Assembly (NCBI GenBank): GCA_034670405.1
Contig: JAXDDX010000071.1
Span: 2,447,501 to 2,511,500 of the forward strand
Source: Hoplostethus atlanticus
Taxonomy: Eukaryota; Chordata; Actinopteri; Trachichthyiformes; Trachichthyidae
Reading direction: 5' to 3'
Length of the DNA: 64,000 nt
The translations under genes and the position numbers were made by a program. The notes below the pieces were generated by a model, which saw only the letters and a list, made by a program, of their open reading frames with translations, made no database searches and was not told the DNA's origin. Below, piece by piece: positions 30,001-64,000 of this stretch (the stretch's first letter is position 1; each line of letters opens with the position of its first letter).

Positions 30001-31553
30001 AGGCTGCCTCAGACTAGTAACTAGGGGTGAGACAGACTGGTAACTAGGGGTGAGACAGACCAGTAACTAGGGGTGAGACAGACCAGTAACTAGGGGTGAG
30101 ACAGGTCAGAACTAGTAGGTGTCTCACTACATCTAGTAACCAGGACAGGAAACGTGTTAAATCCCGCCCCAAATAAAAACACAACAACAATAAGTGATGT
30201 GATTGGTTTCCTGTAAACAGACAGCTGCTTCCTCCTGGCGGAGACCTGATGAAGACCTGATGAAGACCTGATGAAGACCTGATGAAGACCTGATGAAGAC
30301 CTGATGAAGAAGCAGCGAGTCGTTCTGCTGGTCGGACATGAAACACTAATACAAGTTTTTACTGTCACATGGTACAAAATGTCCATGATGCATCGGGAGG
30401 GTCGCTGATCAATCCCAGTGACTCAACCATGACCTGGTCAGCTGCTGAGACTTCTAGCCCCGCCCCACCCCCCGCTGGATCTCTCCAGTGATCTCCTACC
30501 TGGAACCCAGGTGATCTCCATCTCCATGTCCTTGTCTTGCTGCAACTTCTTGTCTTTGTCCTGGAGGCTCTTCAGGATCTCTCTGTACTTGGAGATCTGC
30601 TCAGCACTTTTCTCCTTCTTCTTCTTCTTCTTCTTCTCCTTCTCCTCCTCCTCCTCCTCGGGTTCATTCTCCACCTCTACAGCAGTCTCTCCTGTCTGTT
30701 CAGCTACAACACCTACAGAGGACAAAAGAAGAAGAAGAAGTAGTTTGAATCGGTGACATCATCATATTGCAGTAATGTGTTTCCAGTTATTGTCTTACCC
30801 TCTGCTGTCTCGCTGTCCTCCTGCTTTCCAAACTCCATCACTCCGTCCACCTCCTCCTCCTCCTCTTCTTCGCTGGAGGAGGCCAGGTAGGCGTTGAAGT
30901 CCATCTCCAGCAGCTCATCCTTGTTGAACTTCCTGTTCATGGCGGTCACACGCTCGTGGTCCGTCTCGTCCCAGGTCAGCTCCACCTGATTGGTTGAACA
31001 GAACCTCAGACACTCTCAACGCCCTTTTGTCCGTCTTGGCGGCTGAGAAAACCGACTTCCACAAACGCCTCGTGACAATCAGGACTGAAGTCAACTTCCA
31101 TTTGCACTAAATTATCCAATCTTGTTTGAGAAATATCAGTAGTTTTTTTATTATAAATGTACCCACTGTACTGAGGTCAGTATTCTACATGTTCTGCTGG
31201 TCTCCATGTATGTTACTAACATAAGAACATGGTGTTGACGCAATCCTGCCTTACAATCCATTACAATCACTTTCTTCCTGTGCATGACAGTGTGGTCACA
31301 GTGTAGCAGCCTTGTTAAGGTGCATACCGGTTATACGGTGTGTTCAATGTCGTCTAGTATTACTGAGCCTCACCTTGGACGTGGAGGCGGAGGACGAGGT
31401 GAACAGTTTGGGGGTGTAGGCTGACAGGTCCACTTCTGTCACCTCGTCTTTGGGCTCGTCGTCAAACAAAACGTCATCAGGAATGAACCTGAAGGAAACG
31501 CCCACCCTCAGACAGTCAGATACACACTCATTTTTTATATTACTGTAATACAA

Positions 31554-42600: not shown

Positions 42601-43972
42601 GAACACGTTATGACACTGAAACTTATTCTGCACCACAAATATCACAACATGCAAAATGCCAAAGGGTGTACAACTATATAAAATATTAAGTTATTTTTAG
42701 TCATGAAATCTGCAAAAGAATGGAAATATTTCTATCCATACTTTTGCAGACATTTTGTGCAATTCCCCAATTTTTCAAGATCTGAATATTATCAAGTTCA
42801 TTTTCCATACATTTCCAGACCTGCAGAAGAACTTTGTCTACAGTATGAACATCAAATGACATTTTATTTATACATCACCGTTCCAGTCTCAAAGGTCTTT
42901 ACAGTATGGGGAGCTAAAACTGACATAACTGAGTACAAATAAATGAATTAATGTATAAATAAATAAAATCAACTAATCAGTGTGTGTATATATATATAAA
43001 AATAATGCATGAATGCACACTAATGAATAAATAAAGAGATGAAATATGGTATGAATGTATATTTCTGTATTTTTGTCTATGTAAAATTAATGAGACAATA
43101 AATAAGTAGGCTGGGCACCAGCAGCTGTCACACTTGACACTCCAGGGACCAGTGAGAAGGTATCTGTCACAAATAGGTCTGAATATTGTAAATACTATGA
43201 GATTGATTCCATTTCAGAGTTCCTCCAGGTTTCACCACACAACATTTGGTGTGTGTAACTATTTAGTTGTCTAACAGCCACAGTAGCCACGATCACTGCA
43301 TTGATGTAGCACTCTGGCTCGTGGTCTCCAGCATGTACATGATTATAGGAGACTGCTATTTTCACACGAGAAAATCGATGAGTGGACTGTTAGCATTTAA
43401 TTGATGTACATGTGTCAAAGGAATACTGCTGCATTATTCTACAACCATAGAAACTACAATTATATAATCTGGGACTAACAGTATTTGGCCCAATAAAAAT
43501 AAGCCATATCTGTATTCAGGGGGAAATACATCTAGAGTTACATATCCAGAATACAGTCATGTAAAGTGGCCAACTGCTTGATATCACTGATGATAGATCA
43601 TATGCACGTCCTTTAGGCCTTAGCAAAATTAGAGATTGATAAAATTAGGAAAATGAACATCCCCTGGACCCACTATGTTCTTCAGGATGGAATAGTGTGC
43701 AGGATTTCCTGTTGATCATTGCCTCAAAAGCACCTACGTGGTGCTCTTAGATGTTTGGGGTTTCCTCTGTTTGCTTGGATGTCTGATGCAGGATGGATTT
43801 TTTTCTCCAGGTCTGTCACATTGCTTAGGTCAGCCAGGGAATTCCTCGTCTAATTCAACATTTGGCCAGCAAAGAAATGAAAGTCTCTTTTGCCCCCTGC
43901 AGCCTGATAGGGAACCCTACACCAATATGCATTTGTGCTTGATATTTGATGAGTCAACAGATGCTGCTTTTC

Positions 43973-44080
43973 AAGGAAAATTCCACCCTCAGGTACACTT
44001 ACACTGTTAAATATCAATGTGCATGTCCAATGCATTCCAGGACTTGTTTTATGATGAAGTGTTTTAATTGACTTTTGGTG
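43973..44080 (+). mobile_element. 5' fragment of the 15701-type MITE beside array copy 1
   Basis: AAGGAAAATTCCACCCTCAG, then GCATTCCAGGACTTGTTTTA and TGATGAAGTGTTTTAATTGA match the first 110 bp of the element at 15701-16279. The other terminus is not found nearby. The same fragment is at 61804 in the second clean copy. Confidence 0.65.
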
Positions 44081-45059
44081 TACACAGTTTATAGTAGCGG
44101 GCAGCAGGGTGGCCCGTTATGCTGCGTTCACATCTCATGGGAATAAATGATTGACTGAAAGACAGCTTGTAAGTGTTAACTCCTTCAAATGAGTTTGAAG
44201 CCATGATTGGAGTTCTGTAGGCTTTAATTGCTTTGTGATAATTCTCAGCCTTCTGATGTTTAGCGCAGTCCAAACACTGCAATACCGACCACAAATGGGG
44301 AAAAACAAAAACAACTTGTGCCCTGCCACTGTTGTAAACGAGTCACTTAAATTTGTTTATTTGAAACGTTCAGCTCTGCAACGTGGGTGCTGGCCCCCGG
44401 TCGATATGGAATGCGGTTGTCGACCCCGGGCCAAAGTAGGATGTGGTAACATTCCCCGCTGACGTGAGATGCAGGCTCTCAACACCAGACCGATACAAGG
44501 GCCCTGGTCGACTGAGGACACATGACCACTACATATGCTGAACCATAGGGGCCCTGGCTGTACAAGGATATTGAATTGTTAGTCAACTATATAGCCTGCC
44601 CTATATTTTGTCTGGCATATTACACACCCAGCAGTCCTGTGGGGGGAGATTCCTCTTTGATTTGGCCCAGTCAAGTTTCTTCCATTTTTTCACCTCTTCT
44701 CAGGCTGATTGTGCTGACCAGGTTAGGCTACTTTAGCAAGCCTACATAATCTGCCTATGTCCAAGTCCTAGGCACATCATTTTGGTGGGTGTTCCATTAC
44801 ACCATGAGCAAGGCAATAACAGAGGTCTCAGACACACATGGACAAGCAAAGTCAGTTTATTTTTTCCCCCCCAAAGCCCATCACAAGAACAAAGTCAAGT
44901 TGGCCCATCAGTTGAGGGAAGTCTTGGAAGCACCTTGCGAGGTAGATGGTCTGAAATGACAAGACTAGTCAGTGGCTTTCAGTTGACTGAAAATTAGCTG
45001 GGGAATTGCCAGACAACATTCTTAGCTTTGAGATTCCCTCCTGCCATCCCAGAAATCCC

Positions 45060-48031
45060 CTAGCTGGGCATGTATCTATATCCACTGCCTTTCCCAACAT
45101 TCATGCCAAACCTAAAAGAGCATAACACTAGGTGAAGCTCAGGACCTATACCTTTTTTGAACTGGTTAAGACTGACCTGGACACAAATATGTCAAAATCG
45201 GAGCCAGAAAGTAAACGCACACCTACCCATTTTCATTGAAACTGGTGGCTGCACCTCCAGTCTGGGCAGCAGCAGGATAAGAACCGTAAATGTTGCTGAA
45301 GGCAGGCTGGTAGCTGGGCACCTGGGGCTGCTAGCTGGGCACCTGGGGCTCGTAGCTGGGCACCTGGGGCTGCTTGGGCTCGTAGCTGGGCTGCTGGGGC
45401 CCGTAGCTGGGCACCTGGGGCTGCTTGGGCTCGTAGCTGGGCTGCTGGGGCCCGTAGCTGGGCACCTGGGGCTGCTTGGGCTCGTAGCTGGGCTGCTGGG
45501 GCCCGTAGCTGGGCACCTGGGGCTGCTTGGGCTCGTAGCTGGGCTGCTGGGGCCGGAAGCTGGGCACCTGGGGCTGCTTGGGCTCGTAGCTGGGCACCTG
45601 GGGCCGGAAGCTGGGCACATGGGGCTGCTTGGGCTCGTAGCTGGGCACCTGGGGCCGGTTGCTGGGAACCTGGGGTTGCTTGGGCTCGTAGCTGGGCTGC
45701 TGGGGCCGGTTGCTGGGCACCTGGGGCTGCTGGGGCCGGTAGCTGGGCACCTGGGGCTGCTGGGGCCGGTAGCTGGGCTGCTGGGGCCGGTAGCTGGGCA
45801 CCTGGGGCTGCTTGGGCTCGTAGCTGGGCTGCTGGGGCCGGTAGCTGGGCACCTGGGGCTGCTTGGGCTCGTAGCTGGGCTGCTGGGGCCGGTAGCTGGG
45901 CACCTGGGGCTGCTGGGGCCGGTAGCTGGCCTGGGCTGCTGGGGCCGGTAGCTGGGCTGCTGGGGCCGGTAGCTGGGCTGCTGGGGCCGCTTGGGCTCGT
46001 AGCTGGGCTGCTGGGGCCGGTAGCTGGGCACCTGGGGCCGCTTGGGCTCGTAGCTGGGCTGCTGGGGCCGGTAGCTGGGCACCTGGGGCTGCTTGGGCTC
46101 GTAGCTGGGCTGCTGGGGCCTGTAGCTGGGCACCTGGGGCTTGTAGCTGGGCACCTGGGATCGTGGCTGAAATTTAGGGGTCTCCACATGCTGTTGAGGC
46201 TTGTGCTGGTAGCTGGGCAGCTGGGGCTTGTAGCTGGGCAGCTGGGGCTTGTAGCTGGGCAGCTGGGGCTTGTAGCTGGGCAGCTGGGGCTGCTTTGGCT
46301 CGTAGCTGGGCACCTGGGGCTTGTAGCTGGGCACCTGGGGCTTGTAGCTGGGCACCTGGGGCTTGTAGCTGGGCACCTGGGGCTTGTAGCTGGGCACCTG
46401 GGGCTGCTTTGGCTGCTGGGGATCGTAGCTGGGCACCTGGGGCTTGTAGCTGGGCACCTGGGGCTGCTTTGGCTGCTGGGGCTCGTAGCTGGGCACCTGG
46501 GGCTGCTTTGGCTGCTGGGGCTCGTAGCTGGGCACCTGGGGCTGCTTTGGCTTGTAGCTGGGCTCCTGGGGCTTGTAGCTGGGCACCTGGGGCTGCTTTG
46601 GCTCGTAGCTGGGCACCTGGGGCTTGTAGCTGGGCACCTGGGGCTGCTTTGGCTCGTAGCTGGGCACCTGGGGCTTGTAGCTGGGCACCTGGGGCTTGTC
46701 GCTAAGCACCTGGGGCTGCTTGGGCTCGTAGCTGGACACCTGGGGCTTGTAGCTAGGCACCTGGGGCCTGTAGCTAGGCACCTGGGGCCGCTTGGGCTGC
46801 TGGGGCTCGTAGCTGGGAACCTGGGGCTTGTAGCTAGGCACCTGGGGCCGCTTGGGCTGCTGGGGCTCGTAGCTGGGAACCTGGGGCTTGTAGCTAGGCA
46901 CCTGGGGCCGCTTGGGCTGCTGGGGCTCGTAGCTGGGAACCTGGGGCTTGTAGCTAGGCACCTGGGGCCGCTTGGGCTGCTGGGGCTCGTAGCTGGGAAC
47001 CTGGGGCTTGTAGCTAGGCACCTGGGGCCGCCTGGGCTGCTGGGGCTCGTAGCTGGGAACCTGGGGCTTGTAGCTAGGCACCTGGGGCCGCTTGGGCTGC
47101 TGGGGCTCGTAGCTGGGCACCTGGGGCCGCTTGGGCTGCTGGGGCTCGTAGCTGGGAACCTGGGGCTTGTAGCTGGGAACCTGGGGCTTGTAGCTAGGCA
47201 CCTGGGGCCGCTTGGGCTGCTGGGGCTCGTAGCTGGGAACCTGGGGCTTGTAGCTGGGCACCTGGGGCCGCTTGGGCTGCTGGGGCTCGTAGCTGGGAAC
47301 CTGGGGCTTGTAGCTAGGCACCTGGGGCCGCTTGGGCTGCTGGGGCTCGTAGCTGGGAACCTGGGGCTTGTAGCTAGGCACCTGGGGCCGCTTGGGCTGC
47401 TGGGGCTCGTAGCTAGGCTGCTGTGGCTGGTAGCTAATCTTCCGCTGGAGTCTGGAACTGGAAACACTGTCCCCCTGGTTATATCCACCTTCCCCACTAG
47501 GATAAGAGCCTGCCTGGGCAGAATTGCCAGAGCTAGTAAGGGCCATGGGGCCATAACTGTTGGTAGAAACTGAGCTTGAGCCATAACTAGTAGCAAGCAG
47601 CTGCAAGTTGGCTAGGGATTCAGCAGAGCCACTGTCATCAGGTTGGTATCCTGGTCTACGGAGTACCTTTTCATTAGCACCAGGCTCAAATCCATCATGT
47701 AAAGCTGCAGACAGATACAAATGTTTTTTTTAAAATGCAGTGTGTCATACTGAGGAAGCCATTTCGTGATATTTGAAATGTAGGTTTATAGGTGGAAAAG
47801 TCAATTTTGTCAATATGTTACATTGGCTTTTTAAATAGTTCTAAATGACATGCACTCACATGTACCACTAGCTTGAGGTCTTCCAACAGCTAGAAGAGAC
47901 AGCAGCACCACCCTAGACAAGACAGTGACATTTAGATTGGATACTCTCAACTACGTAGGCAAAACATCTAAGACCATTTTCACGTGAAGCACAGGACGGC
48001 TCTTTGAAAATTACCGTAGAAGAAACGCCAT
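45060..48031 (-). CDS. unknown secreted Pro/Tyr/Gln-rich repeat protein, array copy 1 (frame disrupted)
   Basis: I do not recognise the family. Proposed exons: 48031-48015, 47912-47860, 47704-45227, 45111-45060. The first two encode MAFLLRVVLLSLLAVGRPQA, a good signal peptide. Exon 3 gives a Ser/Gly/Tyr-rich segment (LATSYGSSSVSTNSYGPMAL), then about 700 residues of repeats built from PQVPSYKPQVPSYEPQQPKR. It ends AFSNIYGSYPAAAQTGGAAT, and exon 4 adds FGMNVGKGSGYRYMPS. All splice phases fit only if exon 3 gains four bases: relative to neighbouring repeats 4 nt are missing near 45930, shifting the frame. Beyond it the PSY frame also has TAG at 45331-45333 where TAC is expected. Upstream frames are clean. 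The intron phases (2, 1, 2) do not fit SCPP genes, and no ZP domain is seen. Tyr, Lys and Gln repeats suggest a cross-linked extracellular structural or adhesive role (inference only). Confidence 0.6.
46790..47410 (-). repeat. 60-bp coding higher-order repeat (20 residues)
   Basis: About ten copies of a 60-bp unit coding KRPQVPSYKPQVPSYEPQQP. Several successive copies (46801-47040) are identical or differ by one base. One copy lacks a half unit near 47110 and another gains one near 47160, both in frame. Further downstream (46200-46790 and 45300-46190) other unit types occur (KPQLPSY, EPKQPQVPSYKPQ, RPQQPSYEPKQPQVPSY). Confidence 0.95.
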
Positions 48032-48230
48032 GACTTCAGCCAGAGCTATGATCAGCGGCAAACCCAAACTCCTCTAGCTGCTTCCGGCTGACTCACACAA
48101 TCAGAACAGTCCTACCACACTGACTCAATAGTGGCATGTACTAGTGCAGTTTCTTTAACCTGCTTTGACAGCCAATCACTGTTTTGCTTTCTAATTGGGT
48201 GATTGGAAACAGGTGGAGTTTAGTGAAAGG
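48014..48230 (-). promoter_or_regulatory. probable 5' region of the repeat-protein gene, copy 1
   Basis: Upstream of the start codon at 48031 the gene strand holds CCAAT-like motifs (TTTCCAATCACCC and an inverted GATTGGCT at about 48170-48205). No TATA box is clear. The TSS is unknown. Confidence 0.3.
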
Positions 48231-49579
48231 TGAGTTTTAAATTAGATTTCCATTTCGATACCTCCAGGTTTCACACTAATTTGGTGTGGTAATATTTGTT
48301 TCTTACACCAGGCATCGATAAAGCATGCATAGCTTGGCCAAGCTAGCATTACACATTTAGATCTCTTTTCAATATAGAAATCGTGTGGATTATCATTTAT
48401 TATGTATCAATGTATAAAATGACATTAAAAATTAGAAATTAAATTTTATTGGCGAAATATCTTGCTCTATCAAAAATAATTAAATTAGCAAACTACAGTA
48501 ACGCCATATTAACAATGAACGTTGAATATTAGGTTAAAAATAATATCCATTCTAGCTACAAAATTCAGATTATAAAATTGAAAATACCTGTCTTTCCTCT
48601 AAATTAATGTTGCAATTCTGGTTACTTTGAGAAACTATGTGTTTTTTGTTCCCGATTTCTTAATTCATTTGCAGATGTTTTCAGTTGCAAGATTGCTCAA
48701 AATTCCTCGAGCAATAACTATTTGTCACCATTGAATAAGTCTTTTCCCCCAGGACCTCTAAGTGTAATCATATCAGTAATATTAATTGTTAGCACGATCA
48801 GTACAGTTATACACTTTTAAGTGACTTTTAAGTTTATATGTCCTTCAATAATTAACTTATGAAAGCTTTAATTGACTTTTGTTCAAGTTTTGATGAGCAT
48901 CATTTGGAATTGATGCTGGTTAATACTCATGAAATTTGTGATAGTTTAAGGAGTCAAACCTATGGGATAAAACCTGAAAATTTAATGCATAATTTTGTAA
49001 TATCCAAATGATGTTTATCCAGCGTCCAAACGGATTCACGCAGGGAAATTAAGCTTGCCCCCGTGCCATGTATATAGCACAACCTACTTAAGAGGTAATT
49101 TAACACACCTGCTCCTGTTCCGGAGTAAAGACTTGTTGGAACCCCGCCTATGGGTGTATCCCCTATAAGGATGCGGTGTACCGCCCAAACAGCCTGGCGA
49201 TAGACTCCATATACTTGAACATGACCCTTAGGCTAAGGTCAAAACCATACATAAGCCATATTTGGCATCAGCACACTTTTTGGTGGGACATATACCTCCA
49301 TACTATTGTCTCAATCCCAACACTACTGGCATTGCCATGAAACTTGCAAGTCTGAATATTATCTGCCAGTAAGCCAGCAAACATTGTGGTGTTACCTTAG
49401 CCATTGCAAGATAAAAGTCTAAGACAACACACACAGTTTTATTTTTTCCCAAACCCATAAACAGTCAACAACATGGCCGCAAGTTAAGGAAATTTGAACC
49501 ACGAGTAACTGTTGAACGGTAGACTGGACTAATTGAGCAATTGAGGGTATAGCACACATTCTGATCCCTCGTCGGCCAA
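48231..49579. repeat. degraded flank unit of the array (copy 2)
   Basis: The sequence follows the order of the clean flank 43200-45300 but with frequent small differences: CCTCCAGGTTTCAC at about 48262, TTAATTGACTTTTG near 48875 (compare 44070), and CACACACAGTTTTATTTTTTCCC near 49430 (compare 44860). No genes. Confidence 0.65.
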
Positions 49580-51550
49580 CGAAGCAATGAAGTACATCCT
49601 GTCCATGCTGGCCCCTGCTGCAAGCCAGGCTAATGCACCTGGCTGTTGGCGATCTGGGCTTCTGGACCGTAGGCGCGGGTGGAGTAACTGGACGGGCCAG
49701 CTAGGCGGCTGCTGCTGTGCTGACTGGGCGTGCGACTGGGAGCATGGAGTACAGGACTGGGGTGAGGTGGTGTGGGCCCTGGGCGGCTGGGCTGGTGGGC
49801 TGTACTGGGCCTGGGGCTGTGGGCTCTAGCTGGGCCCTGGGGCCCGGTAGCTGGGCGCCTGGGCGTTGGGCTCGTAGCTGGGCTGTGGGGCCGTGGCGGT
49901 CTGGTGGCTGCTGGGGCCGTAGGGGCTGCTGGGGCCGGGTAGCTGGGCACCTGGGGCCTGGTGGTGGTGGCTGTGGGGCCTGGCTGGGCCCTGGGCCGCT
50001 GTGGGGCCTGGGGCTGGGGGTTGGGCCTGTGGGCTTGGGCGTAGTGGGACGGGGGCGTGCTGACTGTGGGCCTGGGTGGGCTGGGCCCGGGCTGGGTGCT
50101 GGGCTGGGGCCTGGGGCCGGTTGGCTGGCGCTGGGTGTCGGGCTGGCCTGGGTGCTGGCGGGCTGGGCTGGTGGGCCTGGGGCTGGGAGCTGGGCGTAGC
50201 TGGCCTGGGGCTGTGGGAGCGGCCTGGGGCTGGGGCCGGGCTGGGCTGGGTCACTGGGGCTGCTGGGGCTGGTCGTGGCGCCTGGGGCGTAGCTGGGCAC
50301 CTGGGGCGCTTGGGCGCTTGGGCTGCTGGGGCCGGGGCTGGGCTGGTGCGGGGCTGGTGTGGCGCCTGGGGTCTCTGGGCCGGGCTGCTGGGCCTGGGGT
50401 TCTGGGCCTGTGGGCTTGTGTGGCTGGGCTGTGGGGACTGGGCTGGGCTGCCTGGGGCCGTAGTGGGCCCGGGGCTTGTAGGGGCCTGGGTGCTGGCCTG
50501 GGCTGGGCTGGGCTGAGCTTGGGTTGCCTGGGCCCTGGGGCTTGGCTGTGGGCTGGCTGGGACTGGGGTTGGGCTGGACCTGGGGCAGCTGGGCTTGGGC
50601 TGTAGGGACCTGGGGCTTTGCTGGCACTGGCCCTGGGTGTGGGGCCTGGGGCTTGGTGGCTGGGCTCTTGGGCTGGGGGCTTGGACCTGGGGCTTGGCTC
50701 GGGCCTGGCTGGGGCGTGGGCCTGGGCCCTGGGCACTGGGGCTGCTCGGGACCTGCGGGCTTGGCCTGGGGCTAGTGGACCTGGGGCTTGTAGGGACCTG
50801 GGGCTTGGTGCTGGGGGGCCTGGGCCCTGGGCTTGGCTGTACTGGGCCCTGGGGCTTGGTGGGGCCCTGGGCTGGTTTGGCTGTAGCTGGGCCCTGGGGC
50901 TTGTAGCTGGGACCTGGGGCTGCTTTGGTCGTAGCTGGGACCTGTGGGCTTGAGCTGGCCCTGTGGGCTTGGTAGTGACCTGGGCCTGGGCTTGTCTGGA
51001 ACTGGGGCTGACTGGAAGGGGCCTGGTAGCTCGGGCCTGGGCCGTGGGTGCTGGCCTAGAACTGGGGCTTTAAGCTGGCACCTAGGGGCCGCTGGGCTGC
51101 TGGGGCTCGTAGCTGGAACCTGGGGTTGTAGTAGCGCACGGGGCCGCGCTTGGGCGCTGGGGCTCTAGCTGAACTGGGTCTTGAGCCAGGCTTGGGGCTG
51201 GCTGGGACTGTAGGGCAGGACCGGAAGAATGTGCTTAGACGGAACCTGCTGTAGCTCCGGGCCGGCGCCTGGCATAGAGACTGGGGCTTGAACTGTAAGG
51301 CTGGCATTGGTCAAGGAGTGACTGGGACCTGGGCCCTGGGCGTGGGTCTGGAAACTGGAGTGTGTAGAACCTGCGATGTACTAGGACAATGGGCTTAAGG
51401 GTCTGAGTGGCACGGCGTGATATTGGCACTGGGCTCTACGTGTGATACTGGGAATGGGTTGTCTTGCACTGGGCATGCTATGAAATTGGTTTAATGGGAA
51501 CTGGGGCTTGCGTGCCGGGGGGTACAGGGACCTGGTCTAGACGGTTGCTA
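49580..51550 (-). pseudogene. scrambled repeat block 2 of the array
   Basis: Plus-strand words CTGGGCACCTGGGGC, CGTAGCTGGGC and GGGGCTGCTGGGG mark it as the same Pro/Tyr repeat gene on the minus strand, but indels every few bases destroy the codon phase. Long open frames here (for example 49701-50627) switch between PSY-like and out-of-phase A/P/S/Q text and are not credible proteins. Either a decayed copy or uncorrected sequence. Confidence 0.6.
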
Positions 51551-52979
51551 TGGATATCGGCAACGAACTAACGACTGTCCTTGGATACAACCCCACTGAT
51601 AGAAGACCCCGGAAAATGCTCAGGCATCAGTAAGCTGGCAAATTTGATATGAACTAGGAACAGTTGGAATTTAGGAAGCTATTGCAAGTTGTGTCAAGAT
51701 CGTATTACTATGGTCAGTAAACATTATTCAACAATCTAACAATCTTAACTCAGAAGCATGATATATTATTTTAAAGATGCAGGTTCATTGAAAATGCAGC
51801 TTGTATTTAATGAAATGTGTAATGGAATATTTTCAAATTAATGGTCTTTTAATTAAATGCATTCATGCATAATCCATCTTAGGCTTAAATTAGAACAATT
51901 ACACAGCAACAGACGCATGAAACATTAGAAGATACTTCACTAGCATAAGGCACAAACTTTACTTACTAAAAGGCGATCTTTAAAATTACGTTAGAATGAA
52001 TATTGGCAGACTATGTCTCCAACGCAAAACTCCTAGTTTGGTATTGCTCAAGAACGCAGTCTCAAGATTTGTGGATTACTTGTGATTCTTTACGTTTACC
52101 AATCAATTTTTTATGGGAATAAAGTGTTTAGCTCAAAGTCAAATAATATTGATTGGTTAGTCCTCCAGGTTACTACAAACATTGGTTGTTAAAAAATTTC
52201 ATCAGCCAAGTACCAATCATGCATTGCATTAAGAGACTTGGTTGTCTCAGATGAAATTATATTGCATACCGATAGGACTGATATTGATTAATTGATAACT
52301 GGCAAAGGATTATGTATTATTCAACTGAACTCAATATTTGGATTAGTATTTGGCCTATAAAATAAGCCATTCTTTTAGGGCAATTAATTAATATCCCCAA
52401 AATAGTATGAAAAAAGCCATTAGATAATTTTTTATAACTCGCTAGTGTTAGATGTGATCTATGATCCTGCATCTGTCCAAGTATGGTAATCCGGAATCCA
52501 AACCAACTAGCTGGCAGAAAGGCAGTTCCTTTGCATAGCCTAGGAACCCAAGTGGTGCTTAGATTTTGTGATCACTATTGCTGCTTCAGGATTGCCTTAT
52601 TCCACAGGTTGTCATCTATGGCATCTTGCCTTTTTACCTTATGGGCCTTTAAATATCTCTTTCCACCAAAGCTGATAGGAACCTGGACCAATACAGTTAA
52701 TTACTATGGAAATATGAAACTTTAAAATGTAACCTCAATATTTAACATGGTTATGTGAGCAAGCTTGTATGTTCGGGCGTTGTATATGTAATAGCGTACG
52801 AAGGGGAACAAAACGCGGCTGGTCTGTACAACTATGGTTGTTGACTGAGAGCTTGGGTTCTCTTACTTGTTGAACGTGGTCTTAGGCTTTAGGTTTGTAA
52901 TCACGCCTTGTCGCAATGGCCAAAAAACTAAACACCACAATGGAAACAACTTAACTGGCCTGACCACTGCTGAACGGGA
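51551..52979. repeat. degraded gene 5' end and flank unit between blocks 2 and 3
   Basis: GCGATCTTTAAAATTACGTT near 51972 parallels the exon 1 donor region of copy 1 (48001-48020). AGTATTTGGCC..ATAAAATAAGCCAT near 52348 parallels 43480. CTGATAGGAACCTGGACCAA near 52672 parallels 43910. Order is conserved and bases are noisy. No intact signal-peptide exon was found. Confidence 0.55.
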
Positions 52980-55300
52980 CTGGTAAGGACTATTGGCGTA
53001 TTGGCTTTGGCTGGCATGGGCTGGCCGGTGGGGTTGGCACTGGGCCAGGTTGGGACTTCCCCGCTGGCTGGGTGGGCTCTCACCGAGCGGACAGGGCTGG
53101 CTCTGGTGCACATGCCTGCTGCCGGACCTGGGGCTGGGCTGTCATGGACTGGATGTGGAACAGGAGCTCCGCCCATGGTGGCATGGTACTCCCGTCGCTG
53201 GGGCGGGAGTCCTGGTTGTTGGCCAGTAGTTGGTGGGCTTGGGCACTTGCTGTGGCTCATAGGCTCTGGGCCTGCGCCGGTTCGGGATGCCGGCACTAGT
53301 TGGCTTTGTCCATGGCATTCCCTGGCTGGGCTGTCTGAGCCGGCAGGCTAACAGGGGTCAGCAACTGGCGACAAAGGCTGAGCTGGCCCGAGCTTTAGCC
53401 AGTGAAAGGGCTGGGCCGTCGGGATGGGATGGACTGGTAGCGGCGGTTCTGGGACTGGGTGCTGGGCTGGCTGCTTGGGGGCGTATGACCTGGGGCTTGC
53501 AGAGATCTGGTGGCCCTGGCTGGGGCTCGGGTTAGCTGGGCCTGGTTCTGCTGCCGACGGGCAGCTTGGCGTAACTGGGAGCTGGGCCTACTGCTTTGGG
53601 ACTGGTTAGTGCTGGGGGCCTGTGCAAGCCTGGGGCTGATAGCCCCGGGTGCTGGGCTGGGGGCACTGGGGCTGGCGCTGGGGCGAGCGGGAAGCGATGT
53701 GGCACTGGGGGGCTGGGCTGCTGGGCCTGGGGGCCTGGGCTGGGGCTGGGCCCTGGCTGGGCCCTGGGGCGGTCTGGTGGACCTGGGGCTTGCTGGCCTG
53801 GGCCTGTGGGTGTGCTGGGCTGCTGGGGCCTGTGGCACTGGGGCCCTGGGGCTGGCTGGCTGCTGGGGCCGTAGCTGGGCTGGGGCTGTGGGCCGTGGGG
53901 CCTGGGGCTCGGAGCTGGGCCTGGGGGGCTGCTGGGCGTGCTGGGCTGGGCGGTAGCTGGGCTGGGGCTGTTGGCTGGGGCACCTGGGGCGTGCGGACCT
54001 GGGGCCTTGGGCTGGGGCTGGCGGGCGTTTGCTGGGCTGGACTGGGGGCTGGGCTGGACCTGGGGCCTGGGCTGTAGCTGGACCTGGGGTGCTGGGGCCG
54101 TGGCTGCTGGGGGCGTGTGGACCTGGGGCTGTGGGCCCTGGCTTGGGCCTGGGGGTGGGGACCTGGGGCGTGCTGGGGCTTGCGGGCTGGGTGCTGGGTC
54201 GGGCCTGGGGCGTGCTGGGGCCTGGGCTGGGCTGAGTGGCTGGGCCTGGGCTGCTGGGCCTGGGCTGTCTGGGCTGGACCTGGGCTGTAGCTGGGACCTG
54301 GGGCTGTGGCTCTGGGGCCTGCGGGCTGGTGGCTGGGCTGTGCCTGGGCGGGTTGACTGGGCCCTGGGCTTGCGCTGCGGGCCGGCTGGGCCTGGGCTGT
54401 TGGCAGCTGGGACTGCTTGGCCTTCTGCGTGTGAACTGGGCGGGGTGTCGGCTGAACTGGCTGTGCCTGAGCTGGGGCTTTGCTGGAGCCGGGCTTGTAG
54501 CTGGGCACTGGGGCTTTACTGGGACTGCTGTTGGCTTGCTGGGACCGGGTTTTTAGCTGGCGTGAGCTGGCTGGGCGCTGGGACTGGTTACTGACCTGGG
54601 GCTTGAGCTGGCTGGGGCTGGCCTGGCGAGCTGGAACTGGGTTGAGCTGGGGCACTGGGCTGGGCGTGCTGGACTGGGGCTTAGCTGACTGGAGTTGGTC
54701 TGGGGGGCCATTGGGAAATGGCTTGGCTTGGTGACGTGAACTGGCTAGATCACTGGAACTGTAGGCTTGAGCTGGCCTGGGGCTTTGGGTCAGCTCGACC
54801 GGATTGGGCTGGGCAATCTGGAACCTGGGGCTTGTGACTGGAACCTGGGCCTGTGTACTGGGCCTGGGGCTTGCGCTGGGCACTGGGCTATGGGCACTGG
54901 CCTGGCTGCGACTGTTGGGGCCTTGGTGCTTGGCTGCAGTGACCGGGCTTAGCTGGACCTGTGGCACTACTGGAGACGGGCTGGGCTTGTAGCAGGCTGG
55001 GGCTGTAGAGAGCTGACTGGGCCGATACTGGGAACCTGGGTTGACTAGGTCCTGGGGCCGCTTGGTGGGGGATCGTCTGGGAACATGGTTCTAGGCTGGC
55101 GCTTTGGCTCAGGGACTGCTGGGGCTTGGCACTGGGGCCTTGGCCGCTGGCTGGAACTGGGCTTGATAGCAGGTTCGCTTGGCTGGGTTCACAGTGGAAT
55201 GGTGTACTAAGCCAGTGGAACTGGCTGTAGGACTGACTTGACTGGACCTGTGAGACTGGCTTTCTAGGCCGGAAACTGTAAGTGGAATAATTTGTAACGG
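52980..55300 (-). pseudogene. scrambled repeat block 3 of the array
   Basis: Same G-rich plus strand and CTGGGCTGCTGGGGCC/TAGCTGGG words, with no maintained reading frame. Open frames such as 53606-54967 on the minus strand give low-complexity P/Q/S/A text with shifting phase, which is what a frame-scrambled PSY repeat gives. Confidence 0.6.
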
Positions 55301-56039
55301 TTAACGAGGCCTGGTATATTGAACTTGGATTGAGTGAAAATGGGCAATGATAGGTTAAACTGGGTCTTGCAGTGGCTTTAACTGGACCTGGGCTTGAGTC
55401 AACTGGAGCTTGGCTGGGCCCTAGAAAGTGCAATTGGTGTCCGACTAAACTTCCTGGCCAGTCATTCTTGGAAAAGCAGGCTAAACACTGGTACCTGATT
55501 AGGTTGAAGGCACCACTCTTAGAGCTGTCATGGCGCACATAACAGTCTCCAACCATGGCCAAATGATTCGTTCCTCCTGAGCTAACTTATGCATTGGGAT
55601 TAACACTGCAATATGAGACCTCTGAAAGACATGGTTTCATTCAGTTTAGTCAAACAAGATAGTCTAATTTTAGTAAGCCCACTAGTCCATATGTAAGCCT
55701 GACAGGCTCATATTAAAACCAAATATAACAAAACTGTAGTTGACGTATGATATGACATTCAAAGATATAGTGAATCTTAATTACTACAATAAATTGGCTC
55801 AATTTGCTATAAAAGACTAATAAAAAGAGAGCTTCGAACTTAGAAAGGTCTAAGTGGCACTGACTCAAGTTGCACTGGCTTTCATCATAGAGTTAAAACG
55901 TCAACAAGCACCTGGCCTTTGGACTTGCTGACGTTGAGAGCCTTGTCTAGCGACTGGGTGCGACATCTGTACTGGCTGCTAATGAAAAGTACTCGACTGG
56001 ATATGGCGGTTCCATCGAATGGCAGCATACCTGTGACGG
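55301..56039. repeat. short degraded flank between blocks 3 and 4
   Basis: AT-rich sequence of about 0.7 kb, much shorter than the 2-kb clean interval. Nothing coding. Confidence 0.4.
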
Positions 56040-58600
56040 CCAATAAATTCTTAAGCTGGGCTTTTGGCCCTGGGATTTAGGGAGCTGGAATTAACTGCAT
56101 CTTTAGGGTAATGCTGGTTCGAAACCTAGTGGATAAGATTAGTAAACTAGGCACAGAGCTGCCTGCTTGTGGCTGCACTTGGCCTGTGATCGGTGCTGTA
56201 GCGCACAGGGGCGTGCTGGTTCGTGTTAATGAAGTACTGGGGCATTACTGACTTACTAGTTGAGCAGATTGAGATCTGGGCTAGTTTTGGCCCGAAATAG
56301 CACTCTGGTTCGGCAAATGGCTAGGACACAATGGAACAAAGTCTTGATGTGGACAAGCTTGTACGGAATGTATTACGTGCTTGGGAACGGACTGGCATTG
56401 GCTGAATTGGAACTGGAACCAACTGGCACTTGGTCTTCGGTGGTGTGCGGCCTGCGGCTGACTGGGCCCTGGGCCTGGGTGGGTATGGGGTGGGCCCTGG
56501 CTTGGTGGTGCTGAGCTGTGGCCTTGGCTTGTAGGCCTGGCTTTGTGCTGGTATCGCGCGGTTGACTTGGGGGAGCAATGACTGGCTTTGGCCCAGAGTT
56601 GTAGCGACCTAGCAAGATTGGCTGCTTGGTTTGATGGGCAAAGTGGGCTTGTCAGTGGGCATCTGGCTGTGGGGCGGTGTTGCCATGGTGATGGCGTGCA
56701 CCGGACTGGTCATGAGGAGTTTTACTAGGCACGGGGAGACTGGGCCTGGGGCGCTGGCCGTGGTGCCCTGGCACTGGGGACTGGTTGGAAGATGTAGGGT
56801 TAGCTTAGGAATGGCCGCTTGCTGGAAGTTCTGTGTGCCTTGGGACTATGCCAGACTGGCTGGCCTGCGTCATGCACTGGTCTCGAATGGGTAGTAATGG
56901 CACCCTGTGACCTAGCCTGGTTGACGTAATACTGCTGGATTACTGGACTCAGCTAAGGGCTGGCGGCACCGGTTGAACTGGCGTTCGCCCGGGCAGTAGG
57001 AATGGTGAACATTGCTAGAGCTTGGGAGGCTGACCGCGGTAGGCGGGGCGTGGGCCTGGGGCTACATTGGTATGGGACCTGGGCTTCGGCAGGGTGTTGG
57101 TACTGGGCTGTGGCCGCTTGATGGGGTTTTGGCAGTACGCACCAGGCTACGTGGGGACGAGGTCTTGTTGGCCTGGTAAAGCTGTCTGTCCTCTGGGACT
57201 GTGGCCAGGTAGGCTTAGTAGGCTTACTGGCCTGGCCATCTGGCCAGCATTGGTGGTGTACTGCACTGGGACTGGGCTGACTGGGCACTGGGCGTCAGGA
57301 CCAGACTGGGTTTGTTCCCGCACTGGGCCCTAGAATAGCTGCCTGGGCCTGGCACCTGTGGCAGCTGGGCTGGAAGAGCTGGTGGTGCATGGTCTGAAAG
57401 CAGCTCAGTGGGCTGCTTGGTGAGCTGGGACTGGCAATGCTTGGGCTGAGCTTGGACTGGGCCATGCCGGACCGGGGGCTGGTGTAGCTGCCTTGGGACC
57501 ATCTGGCACTAAAAGGCTGACTACTGGGCGTAGTGGGACTGGGCTTTGTGGAGCTGTGAATGTAACTGGACGAAGGCTTGCAGCACCTGGGAACTGGGCT
57601 GCCGTGTGGCCATGGCCGTATGGGTTAACGGGAATTTGGGTACTGGACTGGTGCTAGCTGGGCACCTGGGGCCTTGGGCCCGGGTCTGCTGGGACTTGGA
57701 GCTGGCTCTGGCGTCTGTAAGCGGCTGGACTTGTGGCTGGCTGTTGGGCTGTGTGTGCGGCTGGCTGACTGAGCTTGGGCTGGTGACTGGGCGGGCCGGC
57801 TTGGCTGTTGGGCACTTGGGTTGTAGTGGCGCGTGGGCTGGCAGCTGGGGCTCTTAGGGGCCTTGGGCTGTGGCACGGCTGGACTGGGGCTGGGTGCTGG
57901 GCGTGGCGGGGCCCTCGGTCGTGCTGGCTTGGGTCGTAGCTTGGTGGGGCTCCTGGGCCTGGGGTGTGACGCTGGGGCTGTAGTGCACCTGGGCCTGGGC
58001 TGGCCTGTGGGAATCCGGGCGTAGGATGGGCTAGCTATGGCTGGCGACTGGGCTTGGGAACGGCCCTTGGGGGTATCTGCGGGTGCTGACTATGAACAGG
58101 ATAGCATGGGCTTAGCTGGACAGGTTTATGTGGAAGGTGCAGCTGGGGCGCGGTAGCTGGACTGGCGTACTGGGAACTGGCTTGGAGACTGTAGCTGGGC
58201 CTGGAGATGTTGAGCCTTGGGTACTGGCCTGGTCTGGCTTAGCTGGGCTGGGCTGGATAGCAGACGGAATGTGAATTGTGCTGACCGCTGGGGCTGCAGT
58301 ACTGGACTTGGGATACTGAAAGGCACTGGGCTTGCGGAAAGCGGCAAGGAATTGACTGTCCGACTGCTAACAGCGCCCCGGGGCTTAGCGGTACTGGGGC
58401 TTTACTGGCACCTGGGGCATTGGCTGGACTGATGGGTCTTGAACTGCTTGACAGTGCTGGGCACTGGGCTGGTGGCACCGTGCTTTGGCTGGGCTTGTAC
58501 TGGGCACCTTGGGGCTTGTTGACGTGCTGCCGAGGCTGAACTTAGCTTGGTCGGCTCAGCCATGTACTGGGCCCTTAACTGAGGGAGAGCTGGCATTGCT
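56040..58600 (-). pseudogene. scrambled repeat block 4 of the array
   Basis: More divergent than blocks 2 and 3. Words such as CTAGCTGGGCACCTGGGGCC at 57654 still show repeat identity, but most units are hard to align. No credible protein. Confidence 0.5.
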
Positions 58601-60399
58601 AGCTGAGACTGGGGCATGGTTTGTAAAGACTGAGAGGACTGGAAGTTTGGTCATAGATGGGCTTGACTCGGTTGACTGGGCCAGGTGCCCTACCTGCATG
58701 GGCTTAGCTGAGACCGGCTTTTAGCTGCACTGAGCTCGCTAGGTGTGATACTGGAACTGTGTAGATTGCTAGCACTGATGATCGGGCTCTATGAACTCCT
58801 GGAGTAGGCTGGCCTTGTTTCGGCTGTAGCGGGAATTCCTCCTGTCTAGACTGGCCTTGACGAGCACGTCAACAATCGGACAATGAGCTTAGCACTGGGC
58901 CCTGGGCGAGCGAATAGCATCGGTTTAGCTCCTGGCTGCTTGCAAGAATGCCTCTGCTTATTGGCAATGGCTGTGTGAATGGGCTTGCTTGGAAACTGGC
59001 TTTATGATTGGGTTTGTAGAGGACACTGGGCCTATGCTGTTCCAGTTATCAGATTCATAGCAGTTTGCAACACTTGGGTTTAACTTTGTCTTAACACACA
59101 GGAGCTGACTGAATGTGTCTTTGGGCTCACATATGAGGCAACGGATTTGACACTGAGACTGATGTTAGCTTTAAATTGGATTGTAAAGTACGCTGGACTT
59201 GCAGCTGACAGCAATCAATCTGGTGCCTGGTGCCCAATGAAAAATAACTCCTGATCAGGGAAAACTAGGATCATTCAGCTTGACAGGACACTGCTTCATT
59301 CTTGTAATGGGCAGTTCAGCTTAGAATGATTGTATAGGAAAATGCCATTCTGGTCCTATTCTCAGGTGGAAGAGACATTTGATTGACATTTCTAAAAATC
59401 ACTAGAGACTGATTGTTTGCTGGATTGGATTCAGCAGGAATGACTTTTGCATCGCAATTCTTAGGTAGGGAATACATGATCAACATTGAGTCAGAAAATG
59501 AAATCCTACTCTCCCCAAGGAACCCAAACAAATTCGTTAGTATTGTAAACATGCCAATAATTCGGTAATGTACAACTATCAATGTTATGCGAAATGCATC
59601 GATGTAATTTAGCTTAATTGCTTTGGTTACACAGTTACACGGCAGTCATCAGGGATCCTATCTGGCACCTAAGAAAGTTAAAGACTTATTTAACTCTAAG
59701 ATGAGCATATGAGTTTTGGTCTTTAATGCTTGAGCATTTCAGAATGTGTTTTACCAGTGAACTGCAGATAGAAATGAATGAAAAGTACTGTGCAGCATGA
59801 TAACTGTGCTAATTGTTTTGAAAGTAGCCCAACTGTTGCCCTGTTGGAGTCAACAGTGCTCTGGGACCAAGTGGCAGGACTTCCGTACTAGAGGCTTACA
59901 CTGCCGTACTGGCCTGTGTGAGGAAATGCACTACTTTGTGACCTAGGCTGTGAAGGTATGAGGTGCCTATTGGCAGCCATATTGGGATATGACAGCAGCA
60001 GTCTGGGAATTTCAGATTTCCCAGGTCGACTGTTCAGCTTTGGCTTGTGCTCAGGTCGGTACTTTGAGTCGACTGCCAGGCGTCACACATTGGTGGGTCT
60101 TACACCTGCATGTACAAGTTACAATGGTATAGACGGTATGTTCTGAACTGCGGACAGTGGCATTGGATAGCATTGATCCCGGTAGTGATGAAAGCACTGT
60201 CTGGGCTCTAAATGGAACTAGTGTGCTGGAAAGCCTCATTCGACTGGCCTGCTCACTTGTGGTTAGCTCAACTTGGGCTCCAAATTGCTGGTGACTGACC
60301 TGATTTATGGAGGATCTGCAGAGCAAATCAGTGATGTACTAGCACTGGCTTATGCACTGTGCAACGTCTGAAGATAGGTGGCGCTTCTTACGCCTGCTC
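58601..60399. repeat. degraded flank between blocks 4 and 5
   Basis: AT-richer noisy sequence; no gene. Correspondence to the clean flank is weak base by base. Confidence 0.35.
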
Positions 60400-61300
60400 T
60401 TGGCGTGTACTGGGACACGGCTTTGGTGTGTATGGGCTAGCTGCTGGATGTCTGGGCTTGTGGCCCGGTGTGACTGGCTGCTGGGTAGCGGCGGATATGG
60501 CTGAGCTGACACTGGTTGCCGAGTGACTGGGCTGGTCTGGCCCTGGGGTGGAACGCACTGGCTGTTGGGAAGGGAACGCGGCTGCGTCTGGGCGACTGGG
60601 ACCGGTTTGTACGGGTGCTGGCGTGCGGCTGTGCTGGGAACTGTTTGGGCACTGGGCCTTGGCTGCGGCGTGGTGGGCCGGTGCTTTGCACCTGGTGGCT
60701 GTGAGTGCTAACGGGGCTGAGCTGGCACTGGGCTTGGTGCTGGCTGTTGCTCTGGCACTGGGCTTGGCTCTGGGGCCTCTGGCTGCTTTGCGGGTCTGGC
60801 GACAGCACAGTGGGCCGTTGTCGGCTGAGCTGGCCTTGCTGACTGGGCCTGGGCCCTCTGGGCGTATGGAACTGGTTCTAGGACCGAGTTGGCTGACTGG
60901 TCCTGCTTGTATAGATTGGAGCTGGGCTGGGCTGTACGGCGGTTGTGAGTCGGGGTTGAGCAGTCCTGTTATGCAACTGCTGATAGACCTGGGGCGATGC
61001 GGTACGCTGGGGCTACTGTATGACTGGCAACGGAGACCCTGCAGGTTTGCGTGACTTATAGGCTTCTGGTTGGATCTGTTCATAGACCAGCTTCTGTAGG
61101 CTCAAGATAATCTATGGATGATGCATTGTGGCTGAGTCTTTGGTGGACTTGCATTTGTTGTTATGTCTAGACTGGCCTGCCTACTGAGTCTTCACGGAGA
61201 CTGGCCGCTGGTCATTATGACCTACTGGGCCTGCTTGCCTGACAGGGACTGGTTCGTAGAACGCGCTTGCCAGGCTATATCGAACCTGCCTTAGCTCCTT
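60400..61300 (-). pseudogene. scrambled short repeat block 5
   Basis: A short G-rich block with CTGGGCTTGGCTCTGGGGCC-like words, the least preserved repeat block, then noisy flank to about 61730. Confidence 0.4.
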
Positions 61301-61734
61301 GTCTGGCTTGCTCACGAAGTGGCTGTACTAGGTCCTCCTGTTTGAAGCAGCACTTCTATGGCTTGAGTGAGTGCTGAATGGTATCGTGCATTAAACTGTG
61401 ACTTTTAAGACTGCACAGTGCGCTGCTCGTCTAGGATTTACCGAAGGATTTTTTATGGCTCATATGATATGAACGGAATTGGCTATAGCTTGTGATACAT
61501 AACGAGTTGAGGTGATCATGAAGGCTTTACTAGATATGAACTCGCTCAGATGCGATACTTAATCCTCGATTGCAGATTGTCCTTTTCATCAGATTGCAGT
61601 CACAGCTAGAGCAGTCCTTCATTTTTGCGCTGAATCTTTGCCTGTTAAGGACTACAACTGTATGTACTTAGGATCATACACCAGTAAATCATTTCCTCCA
61701 GGAGTAAGTTTCACTTGGGAATTTTTTTGCCCCC

Positions 61735-62894
61735 CAGCCTGATGGGAACCTACACCAATATGCATTTGTGCTTGAATTTGATGGTCAACAGATGCTGCTT
61801 TTCAAGGAAAATTCCACCCTCAGGTACACTTACACTGTTAAATATCAATGTGCAGTGTCCAATGCATTCCAGGACTTGTTTTATGATGAAGTGTTTTAAT
61901 TGACTTTTGGTGTACACAGTTTTATAGTAGCGGGCAGCAGGGTGGCCCGTTATGCTGCGTTCACATCTCATGGGAATAAATGATTGACTGAAAGACAGCT
62001 TGTAAGTGTTAAACTCCTTCAAATGAGTTTGAAGCCATGATTGGAGTTCTGTAGGCTTTAATTGCTTTGTGATAATTCTCTAGCCTTCTGATGTTTAGCG
62101 CAGTCCAAACACTGCAATACCGACCACAAATGGGGAAAAACAAAAACAACTTGTGCCCTGCCACTGTTGTAAACGAGTCACTTAAATTTGTTTATTTGAA
62201 ACGTTCAGCTCTGCAACGTGGGTGCTGGCCCCCGGTCGATATGGAATGCGGTTGTCGACCCCGGGCCAAAGTAGGATGTGGTAACATTCCCCGCTGACGT
62301 GAGATGCAGGCTCTCAACACCAGACCGATACAAGGGCCCTGGTCGACTGAGGACACATGACCACTACATATGCTGAACCATAGGGGCCCTGGCTGTACAA
62401 GGATATTGAATTGTTAGTCAACTATATAGCCTGCCCTATATTTTGTCTGGCATATTACACACCCAGCAGTCCTGTGGGGGGAGATTCCTCTTTGATTTGG
62501 CCCAGTCAAGTTTCTTCCATTTTTTCACCTCTTCTCAGGCTGATTGTGCTGACCAGGTTAGGCTACTTTAGCAAGCCTACATAATCTGCCTATGTCCAAG
62601 TCCTAGGCACATCATTTTGGTGGGTGTTCCATTACACCATGAGCAAGGCAATAACAGAGGTCTCAGACACACATGGACAAGCAAAGTCAGTTTATTTTTT
62701 CCCCCCCAAAGCCCATCACAAGAACAAAGTCAAGTTGGCCCATCAGTTGAGGGAAGTCTTGGAAGCACCTTGCGAGGTAGATGGTCTGAAATGACAAGAC
62801 TAGTCAGTGGCTTTCAGTTGACTGAAAATTAGCTGGGGAATTGCCAGACAACATTCTTAGCTTTGAGATTCCCTCCTGCCATCCCAGAAATCCC
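61735..62894. repeat. clean downstream flank of array copy 6
   Basis: From about 62091 it matches 44256 onwards base for base at an offset of 17,835. Between 61735 and 62090 it matches 43900-44255 with several single-base indels (for example CCTGATGGGAACC against CCTGATAGGGAACCC, and GTTAAACTCC against GTTAACTCC). It includes the MITE fragment at 61804. Confidence 0.9.
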
Positions 62895-64000
62895 CTAGCT
62901 GGGCATGTATCTATATCCACTGCCTTTCCCAACATTCATGCCAAACCTAAAAGAGCATAACACTAGGTGAAGCTCAGGACCTATACCTTTTTTGAACTGG
63001 TTAAGACTGACCTGGACACAAATATGTCAAAATCGGAGCCAGAAAGTAAACGCACACCTACCCATTTTCATTGAAACTGGTGGCTGCACCTCCAGTCTGG
63101 GCAGCAGCAGGATAAGAACCGTAAATGTTGCTGAAGGCAGGCTGGTAGCTGGGCACCTGGGGCTGCTAGCTGGGCACCTGGGGCTCGTAGCTGGGCACCT
63201 GGGGCTGCTTGGGCTCGTAGCTGGGCTGCTGGGGCCCGTAGCTGGGCACCTGGGGCTGCTTGGGCTCGTAGCTGGGCTGCTGGGGCCCGTAGCTGGGCAC
63301 CTGGGGCTGCTTGGGCTCGTAGCTGGGCTGCTGGGGCCCGTAGCTGGGCACCTGGGGCTGCTTGGGCTCGTAGCTGGGCTGCTGGGGCCGGAAGCTGGGC
63401 ACCTGGGGCTGCTTGGGCTCGTAGCTGGGCACCTGGGGCCGGAAGCTGGGCACATGGGGCTGCTTGGGCTCGTAGCTGGGCACCTGGGGCCGGTTGCTGG
63501 GAACCTGGGGTTGCTTGGGCTCGTAGCTGGGCTGCTGGGGCCGGTTGCTGGGCACCTGGGGCTGCTGGGGCCGGTAGCTGGGCACCTGGGGCTGCTGGGG
63601 CCGGTAGCTGGGCTGCTGGGGCCGGTAGCTGGGCAGCCTGGGGCTGCTTGGGCTCGTAGCTGGGCTGCTGGGGCCGGTAGCTGGGCACCTGGGGCTGCTT
63701 GGGCTCGTAGCTGGGCTGCTGGGGCCGGTAGCTGGGCACCTGGGGCTGCTTGGGCCGGTAGCTGGGCACCTGGGGCTGCTTGGGCCGGTAGCTGGGCTGC
63801 TGGGGCCGGTAGCTGGGCTGCTGGGGCCGCTTGGGCTCGTAGCTGGGCTGCTGGGGCCGGTAGCTGGGCACCTGGGGCCGCTTGGGCTCGTAGCTGGGCT
63901 GCTGGGGCCGGTAGCTGGGCACCTGGGGCTGCTTGGGCTCGTAGCTGGGCTGCTGGGGCCTGTAGCTGGGCACCTGGGGCTTGTAGCTGGGCACCTGGGA
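62895..64000 (-). CDS. unknown secreted Pro/Tyr/Gln-rich repeat protein, array copy 6 (partial)
   Basis: Last exon 62946-62895 and the 3' part of the repeat exon (64000-63062) are present; the signal-peptide exons lie beyond the window. Same products as copy 1: PSYRPQQPSYEPKQPQVPSY repeats, AFSNIYGSYPAAAQTGGAAT, and exon 4 FGMNVGKGSGYRYMPS. It shares the TAG at 63166-63168. It lacks the 4-base loss of copy 1 but has one extra base near 63635, which shifts the frame there. Repeat order between about 63630 and 63830 differs from copy 1 by whole units. Confidence 0.55.

What the first reader, a model, noticed from the sequence alone, without database searches (positions are those of the whole stretch)
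43200..64000. Tandem array of a secreted PSY-repeat protein resembling mussel foot or egg-coat adhesives
Seen: one readable gene with a signal peptide and a 700-residue repeat of PSYKPQ/PSYEPQQPKRP, a second clean partial copy, and about four degraded blocks in the same orientation. Known: mussel foot protein 1 has Lys/Pro/Ser/Tyr decapeptides, and fish egg-envelope proteins have Pro/Gln repeats cross-linked by transglutaminase. Inference: a fish-specific extracellular structural or adhesive protein, evolved independently. I recognise no named family; no ZP domain or SCPP gene structure is present.
Basis: partly seen in the sequence, partly recalled or inferred. Interest (0 to 1): 0.78.

Follow-up and report, generated by a model that had tools for sequence, protein, structure and literature searches.

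The report
Fish repeat-protein gene in noisy assembly
The window holds what looks like a fish gene for a secreted protein made largely of a short proline-, glutamine-, tyrosine- and lysine-rich repeat, perhaps an outer coat, while the extra 'degraded' copies beside it look like poorly corrected sequence and not like dead genes.

Summary
Partly confirmed. The minus strand of 43171-48206 holds a plausible four-exon fish gene: leader-like start, about 90 unique residues, about 700 residues of PSYKPQ/PSYEPQQPKRP repeat (72 of 73 repeat spacings divide by 3), a short tail exon and a poly(A) signal. It is less clean than stated: one frameshift and an in-frame TAG late in the repeat. The partial second copy (61725-64000) has its own different frameshift and the same TAG. 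The four 'degraded blocks' (48207-61724) are best read as uncorrected or badly corrected long-read sequence: flanks of three of the four show 1164 indel events against 510 substitutions, and each noisy unit fits the clean unit far better than another noisy unit. A tandem array of about 5 kb units is likely; its copy number is not reliable. No domain or relative was found, with limits: the protein search sees only 465-1480 residues. The window's own genome could not be searched. Best guess: a secreted, disordered, cross-linkable coat protein, egg envelope first, mucosal surface second. Function, expression and tissue are untested.

The parts
43171..48206 (-). Clean 5 kb unit (unit 0) that holds the readable gene
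   Evidence: Similarity between this unit and the next begins at 43171/48207; nothing left of 43171 matches the gene's upstream side; piece-by-piece map
48015..48031 (-). Proposed exon 1, coding part (ATG, 17 bases)
   Evidence: MAFLLR, donor gtaatt; intron phase 2; inferred from sequence only
47860..47912 (-). Proposed exon 2, rest of the leader (MAFLLRVVLLSLLAVGRPQASG...)
   Evidence: Donor gtgagt, intron phase 1, 8-residue hydropathy peak 3.08; no signal-peptide predictor was available
45227..47704 (-). Proposed exon 3: about 90 unique residues, then the PSY repeat (about 45305-47436)
   Evidence: Acceptor tctgcag, donor gtaggt at 45226; tandem arrays
45060..45111 (-). Proposed exon 4, tail peptide FGMNVGKGSGYRYMPS and stop
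   Evidence: lies downstream of the in-frame TAG, so not translated in the sequence as it stands
44856..44861 (-). Poly(A) signal AATAAA
45331..45333 (-). In-frame TAG late in the repeat
   Evidence: the same TAG is in the right-hand copy
45915..45941 (-). Frame change private to unit 0
   Evidence: 4 bases fewer than the right-hand copy, and a motif spacing of 26
48207..61724 (-). Four noisy units in order (starts near 48207, 52129, 56000, 59000)
   Evidence: Map; error spectrum for flanks of units 1, 2 and 4
61725..64000 (-). Right-hand clean partial copy, beginning in mid-unit and cut by the window end
   Evidence: Matches 43888-46160: 2 mismatches, 12 gaps

Best explanation
A fish gene on the minus strand, just 3' of a gene I take to be NDUFAF5, encodes a secreted, intrinsically disordered protein of roughly 810 residues, mostly PSY units of 7, 10, 13 and 17 residues rich in Pro, Gln, Ser, Tyr and Lys. 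It most likely sits in a short tandem array of about 5 kb units that the assembly did not resolve, so that the inner units appear as noise. By composition the product most likely works as a passive coat or matrix protein: chains are secreted, stay extended because of proline, and are joined through Gln-Lys isopeptide bonds by a transglutaminase and/or through oxidised tyrosines. The egg envelope is the first place to look, a mucosal or skin coat the second. Shown in the sequence: frame, repeat, leader-like start, splice-like signals, noise spectrum. Inferred: expression, splicing, secretion, array, cross-linking, tissue. I hold the anatomy and the noise reading at about 0.85 and the functional part at about one in three.
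For: Register kept at 72 of 73 and 28 of 29 spacings; leader, splice-like sites and poly(A) signal in one order; repeat composition over 494 residues P 28.7, Q 20.2, S 11.1, Y 10.5, K 9.7%; noisy units colinear with the unit, indel-dominated (957 deletion and 207 insertion events, 510 substitutions) and each much closer to the clean unit (scores 133-156) than to each other (43-61; shuffles 29-33). Medaka ChgH/Hm, whose Pro-Gln-Xaa repeats carry most fertilization cross-links (PMC10140178, passages), show that such a repeat can work this way.
Against: Frameshift and in-frame TAG. No relative or domain. No sign of purifying selection by codon position (10, 11, 12 of 220). No expression data. Array copy number rests on noisy sequence with missing parts. 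Transition/transversion does not separate noise from decay here: two natural tandem arrays of this window have ratios of 0.82 and 0.50, a third 16 to 7. One study of adhesive fish eggs names mucin, fucolectin and cystatin-B, not a repeat protein of this kind (PMC9513835, passages).
Confidence: 0.4

Rival explanations
1. Single-copy gene; the array is wholly an assembly product. The right-hand clean copy is the same locus assembled again, bridged by low-quality read sequence.
For: The right-hand copy starts in mid-unit, and 43888-45914 has no substitution between the copies, nine short indels lying at the edge next to the noise; about 700 bases expected before it are not there.
Against: Four noisy units with independent errors follow each other in order and orientation; concatenating separate reads of one locus four times would be odd. 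Identity of the clean copies can also come from polishing with the same reads.
Confidence: 0.2
2. The gene is dead: all copies are pseudogenes of a once-functional repeat protein.
For: In-frame TAG in both clean copies and one frameshift in each.
Against: The frameshifts lie at different places and each copy keeps register where the other loses it, as expected of consensus errors; the TAG comes after nearly all of the repeat.
Confidence: 0.12
3. The inner blocks are truly decayed gene copies.
For: They are similar but not readable; transition/transversion alone (178 to 332) does not exclude decay, since natural arrays in the window give similar ratios.
Against: Indel events outnumber substitutions more than two to one; 512 of 957 deletions and 160 of 207 insertions are single bases; non-coding flanks of the clean unit sit at the centre of all noisy units; noise thins out into the clean copy. 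Three natural tandem arrays of the window keep register with 0% indels, though a fourth, 29642-30107, shows 12-13% indels.
Confidence: 0.05
4. Tyrosine-based adhesive (DOPA) protein for eggs or skin, convergent with mussel foot protein 1.
For: PSY core, Tyr 10.5% and Lys 9.7% in the repeat; mfp-1 has AKPSYPPTYK repeats with 10-15 mol% DOPA (PMC7018715, passages).
Against: Composition only; Gln 20% is unlike that decapeptide; no evidence for tyrosine hydroxylation or an adhesive organ.
Confidence: 0.15
5. Non-coding GC-rich minisatellite that happens to be open.
For: 69% G+C, several frames open, no codon-position bias.
Against: Register of spacings, fixed unique coding flank, leader and splice-like sites.
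Confidence: 0.07

Closest known systems
Medaka choriogenin H / Hm (egg-envelope ZP proteins with Pro-Gln-Xaa repeats)
   Same: Fish, extracellular, long Pro/Gln-rich repeat after a leader; Gln and Lys available for isopeptide bonds (PMC10140178, passages)
   Different: Repeat unit is not a Pro-Gln-Xaa triplet; no trefoil or ZP domain found (PMC3819744, passages)
[quoted passage not shown]
   Same: Secreted Lys/Pro/Ser/Tyr repeat with a PSY core (PMC7018715, passages)
   Different: Unit is not AKPSYPPTYK, rich in Gln, no evidence of DOPA; unrelated lineage
RNA polymerase II C-terminal heptads
   Same: Tyr/Ser/Pro heptads; the 16 solved-structure matches at E up to 1 are RPB1 or its CTD peptides
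   Different: Nuclear, YSPTSPS order, part of a polymerase; the match is read as compositional
SCPP genes (Pro/Gln-rich members)
   Same: Secreted, Pro/Gln-rich (recalled)
   Different: Intron phases 2, 1, 2 here against phase 0 (recalled)

Membership tests
Choriogenin H / ZP egg-envelope proteins | ZP domain | tested here: not met
   Pfam scans of 15 peptides from 42.9-61.1 kb, not of every frame, and the array runs out of the window
Choriogenin H / ZP egg-envelope proteins | Pro-Gln-Xaa (Pro-Xaa-Yaa) triplet repeat | tested here: not met
   Units are 7, 10, 13 and 17 residues of PSY type
Choriogenin H / ZP egg-envelope proteins | Leader peptide | tested here: inconclusive
   Strongly hydrophobic start, peak 3.08; splice model inferred, no predictor
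Choriogenin H / ZP egg-envelope proteins | Liver or ovary expression, transglutaminase cross-linking | not testable with these tools
   No expression or protein data
Mussel foot protein 1 | Decapeptide AKPSYPPTYK with DOPA | tested here: not met
   Commonest units PSYKPQV (19) and PSYEPQQ (13); DOPA itself not testable
SCPP family | Phase-0 introns (recalled) | tested here: not met
   Phases 2, 1, 2 in the inferred model
Secreted, disordered structural repeat protein (general kind) | Leader plus long low-complexity Pro-rich repeat kept in frame | tested here: met
   secretion itself not shown

The most novel reading that the evidence does not exclude
An undescribed, lineage-restricted family of secreted PSY-repeat genes, tandemly amplified next to NDUFAF5 in some fish, unrelated to any known family, serving as a cross-linked or adhesive coat convergent with mussel foot protein 1.
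Probability: 0.15. Interest if true: 0.65.

Novelty: new member of a known kind. Interest (0 to 1): 0.33.

Why it matters
If expressed, it is a vertebrate Pro/Gln/Tyr/Lys repeat polymer that could be compared with egg-coat and adhesive proteins. It is also a worked case of poor consensus in a tandem gene array passing for a family of pseudogenes.

Tried and rejected
Decay of the inner blocks: judged unlikely on indel excess, single-base indels and the central place of the clean unit. Transition/transversion was tried as a separator and failed: the noisy flanks give 178 to 332, natural tandem arrays of the window 163 to 198, 52 to 103 and 16 to 7. Percent identity also separates little (clean against noisy 0.587-0.604, noisy against noisy 0.573-0.579 over shorter alignments); the scores do. 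Nanopore-type homopolymer loss: not supported. Deletion per base was 0.33, 0.29, 0.25 and 0.32 for run lengths 1, 2, 3 and 4 or more, against 0.25-0.26 in a simulation with position-blind deletion; 1-nt deletions lay in runs of two or more in 101 of 512 cases against a background of 0.45. The platform and the exact cause of the noise stay unknown.

Codon-position test on the 60-bp array: flat (10, 11, 12 of 220). Protein relatives: N terminus (residues 9-115), none at E up to 1 among 498 candidates; repeat (residues 113-520), none at E up to 0.001 among the 7988 candidates scored, the list being cut to those sharing most words. The collection holds fish proteins (BTBD3 control: 944 matches, 120 listed), but only proteins of about 465-1480 residues could be seen, so shorter relatives are not excluded. 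Five repeat strings occur in no paper of the held library; that covers those strings in open-licence papers only. Searches returned no paper. Rfam, 42000-64000: nothing at gathering score. Inverted repeats in 43000-48300: two pairs, not pursued. Viral Pfam names (E 0.065 and 8.5, below the curated cut-offs) dismissed. Solved-structure hits of 39280-39543 (repeat proteins, no stretch passing on its own) set aside.

Full report
What is there. The window is fish DNA: the BTBD3 frame at 24070-25146 matches fish BTBD3 best (97% to an unnamed entry, 96% to Paralichthys olivaceus). An exon at 39280-39543 has a weak match to a BioC methyltransferase model (E 2.4e-4, below cut-off) and belongs to what I take, by recall and reading, to be NDUFAF5 on the plus strand, ending near 42.1 kb. 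ESF1 (about 27-35.6 kb, minus) is named by recall; Pfam gave only a sub-threshold NUC153 (E 0.42) and solved structures nothing. From 43171 the minus strand carries the PSY unit.

Gene model, inferred from sequence: ATG at 48031, 17 coding bases, donor gtaatt; exon 2 at 47912-47860, donor gtgagt; exon 3 at 47704-45227, unique for about 90 residues and then repeat; exon 4 at 45111-45060; AATAAA at 44861-44856. The start MAFLLRVVLLSLLAVGRPQASG is strongly hydrophobic (peak 3.08). The 494 repeat residues before the frame is lost hold P 28.7, Q 20.2, S 11.1, Y 10.5, K 9.7, V 8.7, E 4.5, R 4.3%.

Coding evidence. Several frames of the repeat are open for more than 700 codons, against a longest stretch of mean 284 and maximum 603 codons in 200 shuffles, so openness by itself says little. 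Register says more: 72 of 73 motif spacings in unit 0 and 28 of 29 in the right-hand copy divide by three, with one frameshift in each copy at different places; in noisy units 1, 2 and 3, 8 of 12, 2 of 4 and 4 of 6 do not, and unit 4 has too few motifs. A codon-position test was flat, so purifying selection is not shown.

Flaws in the readable gene. Unit 0 loses the frame near 45930, where the right-hand copy has four more bases; the right-hand copy loses it near 63636, where it has one base more than unit 0. Both have a TAG at the same point late in the repeat. Taken as it stands, with the frame change allowed for, the product would be roughly 810 residues and end at that TAG.

The other blocks. 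Pieces of 300 bases from 47600-62200 placed on the clean unit give an ordered, same-strand series of units starting near 48207, 52129, 56000 and 59000, then the clean copy from 61725. Some pieces do not exceed the control (55700-55999: 52 against 50; 61400-61699: 52 against 55). The part after about 44.4 kb is missing from unit 2; flanks of unit 3 and the 5' flank of unit 4 are only weakly placeable (56223-56552, score 44 against 26 +- 4; 58771-59089, 37 against 20 +- 3; 61131-61708, 32 against 21 +- 2). Five flank alignments from units 1, 2 and 4 hold 3806 matches, 510 substitutions (178 transitions, 332 transversions), 957 deletion events (512 of one base) and 207 insertion events (160 of one base). 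Low gap penalties inflate the indel count somewhat. Noisy units score 133-156 against the clean unit and 43-61 against each other, shuffles 29-33; percent identity differs less (0.587-0.604 against 0.573-0.579, over shorter alignments). The transition ratio is no help, since natural arrays in the window give similar values. Between the two clean copies there is no substitution from 43888 to 45914, nine short indels from 43898 to 44247 next to the noise, and identity from 44248 to 45800. Together this points to uncorrected or badly corrected long-read sequence. [quoted passage not shown]

Is the array real? Probably, since whole units follow in order with independent errors. But identity of the clean copies may come from polishing with the same reads and does not date the duplication; the mid-unit start of the right-hand copy looks like a join; copy number is not reliable. 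The own genome could not be searched: ten identical requests did not complete.

Relatives and function. No Pfam family in 14 of the 15 peptides scanned from 42.9-61.1 kb, and in one a sub-threshold viral name; no NCBIfam family for the repeat frame; no protein relative within the visible length range. Solved-structure matches are RNA polymerase II heptads, read as composition. Medaka ChgH/ChgHm carry most fertilization cross-links in Pro-Gln-Xaa repeats (PMC10140178, passages), and ZI-1,2 has a trefoil and a ZP domain after its repeat (PMC3819744, passages). Mussel mfp-1 shares composition and the PSY core (PMC7018715, passages). Work on adhesive cyprinid eggs names mucin, fucolectin and cystatin-B (PMC9513835, passages). 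I commit to a cross-linkable extracellular coat protein as the most likely role, about one chance in three for that functional part.

Noticed in passing
3162-4165, 12246-13371, 33863-34149, 29642-30107: Tandem arrays elsewhere in the window; the first three keep register with 0% indels, the fourth has 12-13% indels. Used as a control.
   Followed up: partly
37808-38022: A 34-bp tandem repeat, 6.3 copies, 98% matches, in what I take to be an NDUFAF5 intron.
   Followed up: no
45192-47729, minus strand: Best solved-structure matches of the repeat are RNA polymerase II heptads (E down to 3.5e-30), a caution for naming such repeats by similarity.
   Followed up: partly
48207-61724: Single-base deletions in the noisy units lie in homopolymers less often than expected (101 of 512 against 0.45), while the rate per base is nearly flat with run length; the cause is unexplained.
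   Followed up: partly
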